This document shows positions 56,841 to 62,513 of a DNA stretch of 64,000 nt, piece by piece (positions within the stretch are counted from its first letter, which is position 1; each line of letters opens with the position of its first letter). The DNA is taken from the NCBI GenBank assembly GCA_000317655.1, contig CP003940.1:1736001-1800000 (forward strand), read 5' to 3'. Source of the DNA: Cyanobacterium stanieri PCC 7202 (GTDB lineage Bacteria; Cyanobacteriota; Cyanobacteriia; Cyanobacteriales; Cyanobacteriaceae). The notes beneath the pieces were generated by a model, which saw nothing but the letters and a program-made list of their open reading frames with translations, made no database searches and was not told the origin of the DNA. The translations under genes and the position numbers were made by a program.

Positions 56841-58247
56841 TTAAAAAGGTACTTCAATAATAAGTAATAAAGATCTCTCTCGGCTATATTGATCTTCCTG
56901 CATATATTGCATTCTGGTTAGGTGGTGCTGTCTATATCTCACACTAATTTCTACTGGATTACTTCTCTTTCCTTTTGGATCTATGATTCTTGCTCCAAAA
57001 TTTCCCTCTAATGTTTTTCTTATATTAAACTCGATATTCCTTGGATTAAAATCTGAATTTGTAAGTAATTCTCCTCTTAAACTTCCTGTCATCCGTGCAA
57101 AAGGTGTAACTTCTTTTGAATAGATGTTAAATGATTGGAATTGCTGCTCTAGCCACGGTGATATTGTCAATCTAGCTCTCAATCTATTGTGTAAGGGGAA
57201 AAGATTTTCATTATTTTGAGAAAGGATAGAATTAGAGAAATCAAAATTCATACCTGATCCAGCCTTACCCAAAATATTTGGAGCCTCTTTTTTGAATTTT
57301 GCTAATAGTCGGGAATCTAGACTGACTTGTCCTCCTCTCTGTTGGTTTGGATATCTTAATGTTGTTCCAAAGCGCCCATTAATCGTTACTGAGTCTTTTA
57401 CTAAATTATCACTCACCGATGATTTATTCATCAACCAAATAATGGCGACACCTAACTCTCTAAGGTTTTCATTAGTACCTAGTGTAAATCCTGATTCAAC
57501 GCTAAACGGACCACCTATCGGCATCGTTATTTTCGTAAATTTTTGAAATCCAAATCGTTTTAATGGTGGTAATGGTGGATCTTGTGAATTGGTAACTTCT
57601 CTAACTTCTATTCTAGATTCTATACTTGCCTTTTTTTCTTTTTTAGCTTGATTTGGCTCAGAACTATCGGCTCTATCATCGGGGGAAGGTTCAGGATCCA
57701 TAGAAAAATCATCCCTGTGGTCTGCCTTCGCTCGGTCGGTTGGTTGTGGCTCATCCTCTGGTAGCTTCTGTTCCATAGAATTACCCTGTTCGATATTCGC
57801 TCGGTCATTTTGATTTATTTCCTGATCTGAAACATAATCTGATTCTGGCGAATTTATATCCTCACTGCTTTCAGCACGATCAACAGGGGTTTGCTCTTTT
57901 GTGGGCGATTTTTCGGGCTGTCTTGGCTCAATCCCCTGCCCCTTTAAATTACCTGTATTATCATCATGGTCAACTGGTGTTTTATCATCTATAAAACCGT
58001 GGTCAAGAGGATTATTAAATAGCAGTGATGAGTCTGGATTAGGCACTCCATCGAAAAAATCACCGTCCCAATGATTGTATCCTGAAGCATTTCCCTGTGG
58101 ATAATGGCACTGTGTACTATGACACTGAATAGAGGATATATCTTGTGAATCATTGCCAGCATTCATCTTTTGGCTAACAAGATCTCCTAATCCCTGAGAA
58201 GCAGATTCAGATAATGCCTCGATAACTGCAGTTATAAGGTCAGCCAT
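56841..58247 (-). CDS. Unknown protein, third gene of unassigned operon (468 aa)
   Basis: I recognise no family. The second ATG (58245-58247) is favoured over the one at 58259 because it follows GGAGGT at the right distance and starts MADLITAVIEALSESASQGL. The N-terminus is a short amphipathic helix. Residues about 55-210 are acidic, Pro-rich and disordered, with a recurring Asp-Arg-Ala unit (VDRAESSEDI, NDRANIEQGN, TDRAKADHRD, DDRADSSEPN). The last 240 residues are strand-rich (MPIGGPFSVESGFTLGTNEN; FARMTGSLRGELLT) and the protein ends LLLIIEVPF. No signal peptide. The start overlaps the end of the previous gene by 8 bases. Confidence 0.72.
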   Translation of the reverse strand: MADLITAVIEALSESASQGLGDLVSQKMNAGNDSQDISSIQCHSTQCHYPQGNASGYNHWDGDFFDGVPNPDSSLLFNNPLDHGFIDDKTPVDHDDNTGNLKGQGIEPRQPEKSPTKEQTPVDRAESSEDINSPESDYVSDQEINQNDRANIEQGNSMEQKLPEDEPQPTDRAKADHRDDFSMDPEPSPDDRADSSEPNQAKKEKKASIESRIEVREVTNSQDPPLPPLKRFGFQKFTKITMPIGGPFSVESGFTLGTNENLRELGVAIIWLMNKSSVSDNLVKDSVTINGRFGTTLRYPNQQRGGQVSLDSRLLAKFKKEAPNILGKAGSGMNFDFSNSILSQNNENLFPLHNRLRARLTISPWLEQQFQSFNIYSKEVTPFARMTGSLRGELLTNSDFNPRNIEFNIRKTLEGNFGARIIDPKGKRSNPVEISVRYRQHHLTRMQYMQEDQYSRERSLLLIIEVPF

Positions 58248-59259
58248 TACTACCTCCATATTGTTTATCTGTTATGGGAGGACGAACAATAACTTGTGCA
58301 TTCAAATGTGCTTCACAAATAGAGAAATAATCAGAATTTATTTCCAAAATAATGCTTTCATTTTCCACCAATAAAGCTGAGAGAGGTAGATAAGCTGTTA
58401 ATGTTTGTAAAGGAGGAGAAACTTCCAAGATCGAAAATTCACTACATTGACTTTCCAATTCATGGAGAGAGAAAATAGTATATGTAGAATCAATAGATTC
58501 CAATAAATGAAATTTTCTTAGTAATGGTCTTCCTAATGAATTATTTTGTCCTTGGCGAAATTGAAATTCAGTTAAGTAACTATCAAACTGAACATCGGCT
58601 TTGAATAAAATTCTATAGGCAATAATATCTTCCTTGGATTCGAGATTTGTTTGATGTCGTAAGTCCTCTGGTTGGGAAGGGGATGTAGAACCTTCTGAGA
58701 CAATTTCTATGGTGGTGGGGGAGTCATTTTCAGGATCTTGTCCTTGTACCCACATATCCAATGTCACCCCATATCCAAAACCATCGGAAGGTGTTAGCCT
58801 TGATGTTGCTAATTCCCAGGCGGCACCCTTTAACTGTATCGGTTGAGGAAAAACATAAATAGGACTTTGCCAACTACACTCGCCCACATTCAAAGATACA
58901 AGGGTTGCTTGTCCTTCCACTTCCATGGCTCGCATATTTCTTATTAATCCACGGTGAAAATCATCATATCCACCTATGGTGTGTACACGATGGGCATAGG
59001 GGTCCGCATAAAACTGCGGAAACATTTCCTTACGTAATGTAATCTTTAACATCGGTCTGTCTTCCAAGTTAGAACGTGACATTAATTCTAAAAGGTTGTC
59101 TGCTTTTAACAGTAAATTTATGCCACTAACGTCAACGCCCATACCCAGTTGAACAGATTTAGTTATTCCCATATTATTGGGGGATGAAGCTAAATTAATA
59201 TCCTCTGCATCTCGCAGATAAGCGTCTATTCCTGCTAGTTGAACACGATCAATAATCAT
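58240..59259 (-). CDS. Unknown protein, second gene of unassigned operon (339 aa)
   Basis: A 339-residue protein with no family I can name. It starts MIIDRVQLAGIDAYLRDAED and looks like a soluble mixed alpha/beta or beta-sandwich protein. Notable segments are SVQLGMGVDVSGINLLLKAD (about 36-55), GECSWQSPIYVFPQPIQLKG (about 127-146) and an acidic Ser/Thr/Pro-rich linker (about 188-210). There is no signal peptide, membrane segment or visible catalytic motif. The ATG is preceded by GAGGAGGT, a strong ribosome site lying inside the end of the upstream gene; the two genes overlap by 11 bases. Translational coupling is likely. Confidence 0.75.
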   Translation of the reverse strand: MIIDRVQLAGIDAYLRDAEDINLASSPNNMGITKSVQLGMGVDVSGINLLLKADNLLELMSRSNLEDRPMLKITLRKEMFPQFYADPYAHRVHTIGGYDDFHRGLIRNMRAMEVEGQATLVSLNVGECSWQSPIYVFPQPIQLKGAAWELATSRLTPSDGFGYGVTLDMWVQGQDPENDSPTTIEIVSEGSTSPSQPEDLRHQTNLESKEDIIAYRILFKADVQFDSYLTEFQFRQGQNNSLGRPLLRKFHLLESIDSTYTIFSLHELESQCSEFSILEVSPPLQTLTAYLPLSALLVENESIILEINSDYFSICEAHLNAQVIVRPPITDKQYGGSNG

Positions 59260-61990
59260 TTTTTACTACCTCCTCAAGCATATCAAACCAAACATCCATT
59301 ACGAGATCTTGTTCACAAGATCCAATATTTCCAGTTCTAAGTTTTTTCAAACCATTAACCATCCCATTACCAAAACGAATTCTGACCCATTCGTCACGGG
59401 TTGTATACAATTTGTCAGTTAGGGCTGGAAGTTCGAGGTTTAAGGGAATCGTACCCACCACAATATCTAAGGGTAATTCTTGCCAATGAAAGTTTACCCC
59501 TTCTCTTCGATTACGAATAGTGCCTGACTGAAGTAGATCACGTACTATTCTGCGATTTAGCTGTCCTCCTCGGTATTCGGTATAGGATTCGGACTCATCA
59601 TAACTATCATCACGGGTTTGAGCATAGTAACGACCTGTTTTGTTGGCTGTGAGACTAATTTTCCCTGTATTACCATTGGCGGATGTGCGGGTACTGGTGG
59701 GCAATGATGGAGTCATAGAAATACCTTTAGAAACTCCCCCCCCCACAATGAAAGATACACCTGCGTTGACTCCCAGATTAAATCCAATTCCATTTAACAT
59801 AAAATATCTACGGACTGTTTCTTCCCCCACAAAACTGGTCAGTGTGCTTACATCTACTCCATCGTCTAGGGTAAGAAAATCTGTTGCTCTATTTACCATG
59901 TCTGTAAATATTGAATCGATGGGTGGGATAGATAAGTTTAGCAGTCCGTCAATATCAGTAAGGCGATTAGAATCTAGTCCTTGCCACATTTGCCCACTAC
60001 CCCAGCCATCTCCTTGTAAAAGTACATTTTGTGGTGGTCTGTCAATAATTGTTGCACTCAATATACGTTGTAATTTAGTAACAAAACTAGGAATGGCGTT
60101 ATTGCTTCCATCCACAAAACCAATATGTTGTGTATGGGTACGACTTTCAGCATTACTGCTCATATAAAAGGAATCTGGTCCTGGATTGGGATTGTAGGTT
60201 GTGAGAGGAGAAGATGAAAAAGGCCATGAGGTGCCTTCCCCCGTTTGAGAGCGTTTCCAACCCTGAGAACCTCCGTAATGATAACGGTGATCAAAACTTT
60301 TATCTAGTGTTTCTGATCTTTCTACACTGACATCTCTAACGGTTTCTAAGTAACGCTGGTTGGCATATAATTTTACCCCTGATAATTGCAATAAATCTGT
60401 AAGGCTACGGGCTTCAAACAATATTTCTTTTAGTTCTCCTCCAACAACATGCTCAATGGTAAATTTGAATCCATGTTTGCCTAGACGACTATAGTCTTCG
60501 GCTAAATCTTTACCGATCATTCGGAAGTTGAGTTGGCGCATTTGTTGGCTACGGGATTGACGAGAACTAATAAACACATGGGCTGATTGAATTAGCTCTA
60601 ACTTTGTCAATGCGAGGTGTCCTTCTCTGGTACAGTGGAATACCGCCACAAAGTAACGGGCGTTGGTGGGACGAGAAAAACGGCATTGGAGGGTATCTCC
60701 TTCAAAGATTTGGTTTTGCTGATAGTAAATTAAATTACTGTATTGGTCATGGGCAGGATCTCGTTCCGATTCCATGGCAATAGGTGATACTCCTTCTACA
60801 GGATCAACTTCATAAATTAGTAAATCGAAGATACCAGAGTTATCATTGGTCAACGATGTAACTTGTCTAGGGTTGGGCAGACTGAGAGTTATGCCACTTA
60901 GACAGCGAGGATGTTCTTCTGTTTGTTGAAAATAAAGTCGAACTTGCTCTCTTTGTTGAACTTTTTGCGAGATAAAAATTTCATCGATATTTAAGGGGTT
61001 ATTATCACTTGGTATTTGATATAGGCGACCACCATTAAAAAGTGATGCGGCACTCATGGGGAAATATCCCACGGCATTGGTTCGGGTGAAAACAAAATCG
61101 GTGGATGTATTTTTCATTTGGTTTCTCATCTGGCGGGGAAATTTTCCCTGCTCGAAATAGCTTTGTTCTAATGAGTCGGACATTTTTACTGCCCCTAACA
61201 AACCCGCTGGAACTTTTGGAGTATAACGGACATCTTCTGAGTAGCTAAAAACTCCTAAGTAAGGTATGAATACTCCCCAAAATTCTACGGTGCGATCGCT
61301 ATCAGGTTGAATTCGACGTATAATACGGGGAAAATCGGCAAAGCGAATTCTGATTTTTTCACTTTTTACAGGACCTGTGGCGATTAGGTGTAAACCACTA
61401 TGGGAGGTTGGTTCTTGTCGTACGAATGCTACTTTTTCATCAAGAAATCCTGTTTGGATGTGATCTTCCCAAGAAACATGAATTTCTCGGGGCAGACCAA
61501 AATTAGCGGAATTTTCGCCTTGAGGTGTGATGTAATAGGGAAGATAAGGATAACCACCGAACAAAATTCCTCCTATGATAGGGCATTGAGTTCCACGCAT
61601 CGTCTCAAGGGTTATTTCAATTTCAAACCAGAATTCCTGTGACTTTTGATTTTCTTCTATAACTGGTCCACCCGCCCTTACGGTTATAAAAGGATTAGTA
61701 ACATTAGAAGGTAATCCTACTACTGTCTCTACATTGTCCAGATTAGAAGTTGGAAAAGTTAATGTTCCTGTGCCAGGAGCTCCACCCCTAACAAGAACAT
61801 CAGGCATGAAATCTTCTATATTTATGGGAGGAGGTTCAAATCCTGGTGGTGGTATCTCGTGAGCGGTTTCCGCATATACAATAGATCCCGAGCTTGATAA
61901 TATTGGAGAGCGACTAATTATACTCACATTTACCACTTCAATTAATTGCCCGACTGTGGTACGTAATGGCATATATTTGGTGCTATACAT
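59249..61990 (-). CDS. Large unknown protein, first gene of unassigned operon (913 aa)
   Basis: A 913-residue protein without signal peptide or membrane helices and with no family I recognise. Residues 40-330 are strand-rich with many Pro, Gly and aromatic residues (GGILFGGYPYLPYYITPQGE). A middle part (about 355-475) reads like a beta sandwich (DNSGIFDLLIYEVDPVEGVS; ARYFVAVFHCTREGHLALTK). Residues 475-560 are Arg/Gln-rich and helical. A glycine/serine-rich stretch (about 720-800, GVNAGVSFIVGGGVSKGISM) precedes a charged C-terminal domain. Together with its partners it looks like a structural or assembly protein, possibly tail-like or envelope-associated, but nothing proves this. Confidence 0.78.
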   Translation of the reverse strand: MYSTKYMPLRTTVGQLIEVVNVSIISRSPILSSSGSIVYAETAHEIPPPGFEPPPINIEDFMPDVLVRGGAPGTGTLTFPTSNLDNVETVVGLPSNVTNPFITVRAGGPVIEENQKSQEFWFEIEITLETMRGTQCPIIGGILFGGYPYLPYYITPQGENSANFGLPREIHVSWEDHIQTGFLDEKVAFVRQEPTSHSGLHLIATGPVKSEKIRIRFADFPRIIRRIQPDSDRTVEFWGVFIPYLGVFSYSEDVRYTPKVPAGLLGAVKMSDSLEQSYFEQGKFPRQMRNQMKNTSTDFVFTRTNAVGYFPMSAASLFNGGRLYQIPSDNNPLNIDEIFISQKVQQREQVRLYFQQTEEHPRCLSGITLSLPNPRQVTSLTNDNSGIFDLLIYEVDPVEGVSPIAMESERDPAHDQYSNLIYYQQNQIFEGDTLQCRFSRPTNARYFVAVFHCTREGHLALTKLELIQSAHVFISSRQSRSQQMRQLNFRMIGKDLAEDYSRLGKHGFKFTIEHVVGGELKEILFEARSLTDLLQLSGVKLYANQRYLETVRDVSVERSETLDKSFDHRYHYGGSQGWKRSQTGEGTSWPFSSSPLTTYNPNPGPDSFYMSSNAESRTHTQHIGFVDGSNNAIPSFVTKLQRILSATIIDRPPQNVLLQGDGWGSGQMWQGLDSNRLTDIDGLLNLSIPPIDSIFTDMVNRATDFLTLDDGVDVSTLTSFVGEETVRRYFMLNGIGFNLGVNAGVSFIVGGGVSKGISMTPSLPTSTRTSANGNTGKISLTANKTGRYYAQTRDDSYDESESYTEYRGGQLNRRIVRDLLQSGTIRNRREGVNFHWQELPLDIVVGTIPLNLELPALTDKLYTTRDEWVRIRFGNGMVNGLKKLRTGNIGSCEQDLVMDVWFDMLEEVVKNDY

Positions 61991-62513
61991 TTAACCCTCT
62001 TGGTATTATTTACATCAGAAATGTTGCATATTCAATACCTATAAAAGTATTTGCTCAATACTTCAATTTATCTATATAAATGCAACAAGTCTAATAAAAA
62101 TTACCTGTCATTCAAGAAAAATGGGAATATTTTTTGATGGGTGTTGTACAAAACCAAACACAGCAATCCCTCATTACTACCACAAAAAACTGATTTACAG
62201 GGATTATATTAACTTTCAGCTTTTATGGTTAATGGTAAATGTTTTAATAGTAGGTAATTTTATGGGTAAATTTTAACTGAAAAATTATTCAACTACCATA
62301 AATATTTTATTTTGTTTATAAAAATTAATGATATAAAATGTGGGTATATCATTTAATTGTTATACTCACAAAAAACAACTATACTTCAAAAAAAGCAACT
62401 CAGAAACCTATATCTGTTATGACAAAGTTTTTCTCTTTTGCTATATTTTTCTTGATTAAATAGACAGTTAAGATAATTCGTGGTTTTTTTCATGAACGCT
62501 CTCAAAGTCTTAT
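61991..62513. promoter_or_regulatory. Intergenic region upstream of the unknown operon
   Basis: 523 very AT-rich bases with no recognised gene. The operon promoter should lie at about 62000-62150. A near-perfect inverted repeat GTGGGTATA / TATACTCAC (62340-62348 and 62361-62369) could terminate the gene ending at 62514 (on the minus strand it is followed by ATTTTATATC). A 51-codon frame at 62121-62276 on the plus strand starts MGIFFDGCCTKPNTAIPHYY; I do not accept it as a gene. Confidence 0.4.

What the first reader, a model, noticed from the sequence alone, without database searches (positions are those of the whole stretch)
56841..61990. Three-gene operon of large proteins with no recognisable family
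Genes of 913, 339 and 468 residues overlap by 11 and 8 bases. Both internal starts carry the same strong ribosome site in the sequence GAGGTAGTA, unlike most genes here, so stoichiometric coupled translation is likely. None has a signal peptide or transmembrane helix. The first two are rich in beta structure and the third has an amphipathic N-terminal helix, a disordered acidic linker and a beta-rich end. This fits a structural assembly (phage-tail-like, vesicle-like or surface-associated), but no capsid, sheath, terminase or secretion gene is nearby.
Basis: partly seen in the sequence, partly recalled or inferred. Interest (0 to 1): 0.75.

Follow-up and report, generated by a model that had tools for sequence, protein, structure and literature searches.

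The report
Cyanobacterial operon with swappable toxin-like tip
Three overlapping genes of unknown family in a cyanobacterium form a rare unit that is found whole at a different genomic site in each relative, and its third protein keeps its front end but swaps its rear end between relatives (in one of them for a known bacterial toxin tip), so it is probably a toxin carrier with two new partner proteins.

Summary
In detail: three minus-strand genes (913, 339, 468 aa) overlap by 11 and 8 bp, and both internal starts carry a strong GGAGG site. None matches Pfam, NCBIfam, PHROGs, PADLOC or the PDB. The operon is very rare. I found it in one close relative (L031, 89/92% identity in genes 1/2) and in one distant cyanobacterium of another family (G563; genes 1 and 2 at 29/35%, profile E about 1e-47). 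It was absent from about 800 other cyanobacterial genomes, including four congeners.

The order 1-2-3 is kept in three unrelated genomic contexts. The decisive evidence is gene 3: its acidic, disordered front (about 195 aa, four xDRA motifs) is kept in L031, but the C-terminal halves are unrelated. In G563 the third-gene C-terminus is a nuclease-like (HNH-type) tip homologous to tips of RHS polymorphic toxins, which in Streptomyces are followed by SUKH immunity genes.

Best reading: a polymorphic toxin/effector operon, with gene 3 as modular cargo and genes 1 and 2 as conserved carrier or adaptor proteins. Delivery is inferred. The window's own tip is unidentified, no immunity gene is adjacent, and both structure predictions failed. 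'Phage-tail/vesicle-like structure' is not supported; 'an unknown co-conserved multi-protein unit' is.

The parts
59249..61990 (-). Gene 1, 913 aa; conserved partner protein of unknown family. Residues ~123-560 hold the core conserved in the distant relative (GGIxFxGYP, NxGLPREI, IQSAH, FRxxGxDLxEDY, RSLTDL).
   Evidence: dN/dS 0.24; no library hit
58240..59259 (-). Gene 2, 339 aa; conserved partner protein of unknown family (conserved KExFP, RVHxxxG, WELATSRL).
   Evidence: dN/dS 0.16; no library hit
56841..58247 (-). Gene 3, 468 aa; modular protein, proposed effector/toxin carrier.
57663..58247 (-). Constant front of gene 3 (residues 1-195): amphipathic N-terminal helix and acidic disordered linker with four xDRA motifs (residues 123, 148, 171, 191).
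   Evidence: 58-100% amino-acid identity per 20-residue block to L031; DRA count reached by 0 of 20000 shuffles; helix moment
56844..57662 (-). Variable C-terminal part of gene 3 (residues 196-468), unrelated to the C-terminus of the L031 gene 3; proposed cargo/toxin tip, activity unknown.
   Evidence: identity collapse after residue ~195, no BLASTP match between the tips; AlphaFold2 of residues 225-468 failed, pLDDT 33
59269..59274 (-). Shine-Dalgarno AGGAGG of gene 2, inside the end of gene 1
58253..58257 (-). Shine-Dalgarno GGAGG of gene 3, inside the end of gene 2
61991..62035 (-). Short 5' leader conserved with L031 (TGCAACATTTnTnATGTAnATAATAC) although sequence further upstream has diverged

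Best explanation
The operon is a polymorphic toxin/effector unit. Gene 3 is a modular effector: a constant acidic, disordered front carries an exchangeable C-terminal domain. Genes 1 and 2 are constant partners, translated in coupled fashion, that most likely bind the gene 3 front, keep the effector sequestered and inactive, and take part in carrying it out of the producer or onto a target cell. Shown here: the operon, its order in relatives, purifying selection on genes 1 and 2, the swap of the gene 3 C-terminus, and homology of one swapped-in C-terminus to RHS toxin tips. Inferred: that the window's own tip is toxic, that genes 1 and 2 bind gene 3, the route of delivery, and the target. The lack of an adjacent immunity gene fits targets other than close kin, or an effector held inactive inside a complex; missing immunity genes are also reported for many PVC/eCIS toxins (PMC3482391, PMC8213781).
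For: (1) Gene 3 against L031: residues 1-195 are 58-100% identical per block, then identity falls to chance with no BLASTP match, while genes 1 and 2 next to it stay at 89% and 92%. (2) In G563 the reading frame after gene 2 ends in a 153-aa domain that hits, at E=8e-8, the C-terminus of a 1417-aa RHS reading frame of Streptomyces sp. NBC_01483 followed by a SUKH immunity gene (Pfam 1.5e-17). It also hits Photobacterium GJ3 (E=1e-6) and S. dangxiongensis (E=4e-5, at an RHS gene followed by SMI1/KNR4). (3) Genes 1 and 2 co-occur in G563 with profile E=1.8e-47 and 1.1e-47. The gene 2 contig starts with a frame ending ...EKITNDSDF*, overlapping the gene 2 start much as ...EVVKNDY* does here, so adjacency is very likely. 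(4) dN/dS 0.24 and 0.16 for the partners, about 0.8 for the gene 3 front. (5) Sporadic distribution and three different genomic neighbourhoods (phoH/HEAT protein; EAL gene; HerA fragment), as for mobile conflict systems.
Against: The window's own gene 3 tip and the L031 tip match nothing known, so toxicity rests on one relative. That relative's gene 3 is split by a frame break (real or an assembly error), and its N-terminus shares only low-complexity character with the window's. No immunity gene is adjacent in the window or in G563. No secretion signal, RHS repeat, PAAR, WXG/LXG or metallopeptidase domain was recognised. A role of genes 1 and 2 in delivery has no direct evidence.
Confidence: 0.6

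Rival explanations
1. Modular surface or adhesion assembly: genes 1 and 2 form a surface or extracellular complex and the gene 3 C-terminus is an exchangeable binding or enzymatic domain that is not a toxin; the toxin-like tip in G563 is a secondary acquisition.
For: The window and L031 tips match no toxin. Large constant partners and an acidic linker could be scaffold.
Against: No secretion signal, anchor or transmembrane segment in any of the three. A C-terminal swap with an RHS toxin tip in one of three members is what toxin carriers do, not adhesins.
Confidence: 0.2
2. Phage-tail-like or capsid-like particle remnant: genes 1-3 are structural virion or tail-like proteins.
For: Three coupled, co-conserved genes; found at different genomic places.
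Against: No hit in PHROGs, 50,697 phage records, eight IMG/VR scans or plasmids. No Phage_sheath_1 in G000 or G563, with controls positive.
Confidence: 0.07
3. Intracellular defence (abortive) system: genes 1 and 2 sense or hold, gene 3 tip is a nuclease or other killer released on infection; no delivery to other cells.
For: In G563 the unit lies beside a HerA-type ATPase fragment and transposase; the tip is nuclease-like; no immunity gene and no secretion signal.
Against: No PADLOC match for genes 1-3. The HerA neighbour is not shared by the other two loci. Tips shared with RHS exotoxins are normally delivered.
Confidence: 0.1

Closest known systems
Classical polymorphic toxin systems (RHS, CdiA/FilH, LXG; Zhang et al. 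2012, PMC3482391)
   Same: Constant front with exchangeable C-terminal tip; one tip (G563) is homologous to RHS tips with SUKH immunity neighbours.
   Different: No recognised trafficking domain or repeats on gene 3; no adjacent immunity gene; two constant unknown partner genes upstream.
eCIS / PVC cargo effectors (PMC8213781, PMC3482391)
   Same: Variable C-terminal toxins after a constant front, often without adjacent immunity genes.
   Different: No sheath gene in either genome, no PVC-metallopeptidase; the operon has three genes instead of 15-28.
T7SSb LXG effectors with dual targeting factors (PMC9600955, title and abstract only)
   Same: Variable C-terminal toxin needing two partner proteins.
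   Different: No LXG domain; partners here are 913 and 339 aa, in a cyanobacterium; no sequence relationship found.
Tc toxins (from general knowledge)
   Same: Multi-protein toxin complex whose last component has a hypervariable C-terminus.
   Different: No RHS repeats and no Tc-type domain in any Pfam scan; far smaller components.

Membership tests
Polymorphic toxin system | Constant N-terminal part joined to C-terminal domains that differ between close relatives | tested here: met
   Window vs L031 gene 3: sharp break after residue ~195 while genes 1 and 2 are 89/92% identical
Polymorphic toxin system | C-terminal domain shared with other polymorphic toxin families | tested here: inconclusive
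   Met in G563 (RHS tips, E=8e-8); not met for the window and L031 tips
Polymorphic toxin system | Adjacent immunity gene | tested here: not met
   Gene 3 ends 56 bp from convergent phoH; in G563 the next ORF is a convergent 395-aa gene without an immunity match
Polymorphic toxin system | Recognised trafficking domain (RHS, FilH, LXG/WXG, PAAR, etc.) | tested here: not met
   No Pfam/NCBIfam/PHROG hit in genes 1-3 or relatives
Polymorphic toxin system | Toxic activity of the tip | not testable with these tools
   Needs an expression assay
eCIS / PVC system | Contractile sheath gene in the genome | tested here: not met
   PF04984 absent from G000 and G563, controls positive
eCIS / PVC system | PVC-metallopeptidase HExxH in the cargo | tested here: not met
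   No HExxH in P0003 or P0005 as printed
Phage tail / capsid | Homology to structural phage families or neighbours (capsid, terminase, sheath) | tested here: not met
   PHROGs, phage and IMG/VR searches negative
Anti-phage defence system | Match to a known or candidate defence family | tested here: not met
   PADLOC: none for genes 1-3; one E=0.014 match in the G563 gene 2, treated as chance

The most novel reading that the evidence does not exclude
Genes 1 and 2 are the core of a previously undescribed, minimal toxin-carrying or toxin-delivering complex of cyanobacteria that captures exchangeable toxin tips on gene 3, protects the producer without a dedicated immunity protein, and is unrelated to contractile, RHS, Tc or T6SS machinery.
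Probability: 0.25. Interest if true: 0.85.

Novelty: new variant of a known kind. Interest (0 to 1): 0.62.

Why it matters
Polymorphic toxins are normally recognised by their delivery domain or immunity gene. This operon has neither, so family searches miss it, and it was detectable only through comparison of relatives. If genes 1 and 2 carry or sequester the gene 3 effector, they are two new protein families for toxin carriage in cyanobacteria. The lack of immunity genes, an open question already raised for eCIS toxins (PMC8213781), could be addressed in a three-gene system.

Tried and rejected
Family libraries and PDB by sequence and profile: nothing. Weak hits of gene 1 to a 458-aa protein of small-genome cyanobacteria and others (E 0.002-1) were dropped: they vanished with the three-row profile. 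AlphaFold2 of gene 2 (two rows) and of the gene 3 tip (one row): pLDDT 26 and 33, unusable, so no fold search was made. Rows from G563 were not handed to the structure tool because its stated rule lists only other sources. Empty-site comparison with congeners: the phoH neighbourhood is not syntenic, so insertion versus loss cannot be mapped. A weak impression that gene 1 residues ~120-250 have a discoidin-like pattern is untested and not claimed. The impression that the window tip, with its alternating strands and terminal F, resembles an outer-membrane barrel is likewise untested. The promoter/terminator scan found no more than chance.

Full report
What was checked. Both internal starts have a GGAGG core within GAGGTAGTA. 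Of 48 window genes, 10 have any SD-like core of four bases and 6 one of five, so this is unusual here. The genome is one contig of 3,163,381 bp; from memory this is the size of Cyanobacterium stanieri PCC 7202. The three proteins hit nothing in Pfam, NCBIfam or PHROGs above noise, nothing in PADLOC, and no PDB chain by sequence or profile.

Distribution. Gene 1 was absent from 60 relatives, four of them congeners, and from 386 genomes drawn across the phylum. Gene 2 was absent from the same phylum draw and from 335 genomes of the class apart from an uninformative hit in a frame full of stops. Plasmids, phages and IMG/VR gave no relative. A scan of GTDB r220 contigs gave one locus, L031: a 5.8-kb contig binned into a Psychroflexus MAG, encoding the whole operon. 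The MAG name suggests a sediment sample, and the contig is probably misbinned cyanobacterial DNA. A profile of the two gene 1 sequences then found a distant homologue in G563, of another family of the order (E=1.8e-47). The gene 2 profile found its homologue in the same genome (E=1.1e-47). No other of the 27 family members searched has gene 1.

Order and context. In L031 the order and overlaps are the same. In G563 the two genes lie at the ends of two contigs. The first bases of the gene 2 contig hold, in another frame...NFEKLLISEKITNDSDF*, overlapping the gene 2 start as ...FDMLEEVVKNDY* does here, so the two contigs very probably adjoin. The flanks differ in all three: phoH and a TPR/HEAT protein in the window; the end of an EAL gene in L031; a HerA-type fragment and a transposase in G563. 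The unit therefore sits, whole, at a different place in each genome. In congeners the phoH region is not syntenic.

The key feature. Between the window and L031, genes 1 and 2 are 89% and 92% identical with dN/dS 0.24 and 0.16. The gene 3 front (residues 1-194) is also alike but evolves fast (dN/dS about 0.80). After residue ~195 identity drops to chance and BLASTP finds no match between the two C-terminal halves. The front holds an amphipathic helix (residues 2-19) and an acidic linker with four xDRA motifs, spaced about 20-25 residues apart, in both sequences. Such a constant front and exchanged end is the hallmark of polymorphic toxins (PMC3482391).

A known toxin tip in the third member. 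After gene 2, G563 has a short acidic, disordered ORF. A frame break follows (real or assembly error; not mended here), then a frame that ends in VHHAIELQVLDRYPG...ELNDFQNMRGI...LHNSYIRSAWNRHY. Searched on its own, this 153-aa piece hits three plasmid loci. In Streptomyces sp. NBC_01483 it is the extreme C-terminus of an RHS reading frame of more than 1400 aa, followed by a SUKH immunity gene (Pfam E=1.5e-17). In S. dangxiongensis it lies at an RHS gene followed by SMI1/KNR4. In Photobacterium GJ3 it is a short tip ORF followed by an unidentified small gene. The HH...E...N...H motif suggests an HNH/EndoVII-type nuclease, a class that PMC3482391 lists with SUKH immunity proteins, but no Pfam clade matched.

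Mechanism. I propose that gene 3 is the effector and genes 1 and 2 its constant partners, made by coupled translation so that the effector is bound as it is synthesised. Binding of the DRA front by genes 1 and/or 2, sequestration, and carriage to a target are inferences. No immunity gene adjoins (56 bp to phoH; a convergent ORF in G563). Both cited surveys report missing immunity genes for many PVC/eCIS toxins, and PMC3482391 suggests that such toxins act on distantly related organisms. No contractile sheath gene exists in either genome, so these are not eCIS cargo by that test.

Limits. Toxicity of the window's own tip is not shown and its fold is unknown; both AlphaFold2 jobs failed. The toxin assignment rests on one distant relative. 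The beta-rich claim is unverified. Three operons are few, and the genome search samples each group rather than searching all of it, so rarity is an estimate.

Verdict. The structural-assembly reading is replaced by a modular toxin/effector operon with two new, constant partner families: a new variant of a known kind, possibly a new carriage principle.

Noticed in passing
L052:2226-3053 (+), G563: HerA-type ATPase (HAS barrel + DUF87) beside gene 1 that appears to lack the first part of the central domain (profile match starts at position 90 of 220), followed by a DDE transposase: probably a decayed HerA system at the insertion site.
   Followed up: partly
L055:501-1688 (+), G563: Convergent 395-aa ORF after gene 3 that by eye resembles NurA, which would place the operon between nurA and herA; Pfam did not support this.
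   Followed up: partly
L031:1-5834 (PXBV01000294.1): Contig in a Psychroflexus (Bacteroidota) MAG with an operon 89-92% identical to a cyanobacterial one: likely misbinned.
   Followed up: partly
L058:3839-4689, Photobacterium GJ3 plasmid: Short toxin-tip ORF followed by a 139-aa gene without family match: possible orphan toxin cassette with a new immunity gene.
   Followed up: no
L056:3232-4805, S. dangxiongensis plasmid: RHS gene whose tip appears frame-broken before a SMI1/KNR4 gene: perhaps a decayed toxin with its immunity gene retained.
   Followed up: no
L052:5284-8166 (+), G563: 960-aa repeat protein with repeated 'VSTLEDENDGDFSEGDLSLREAI' units (CSLREA-like) near the operon.
   Followed up: no
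window:55831-56784: phoH is 81-96% identical in three congeners, but its neighbours differ completely, showing strong gene-order shuffling in this genus.
   Followed up: partly
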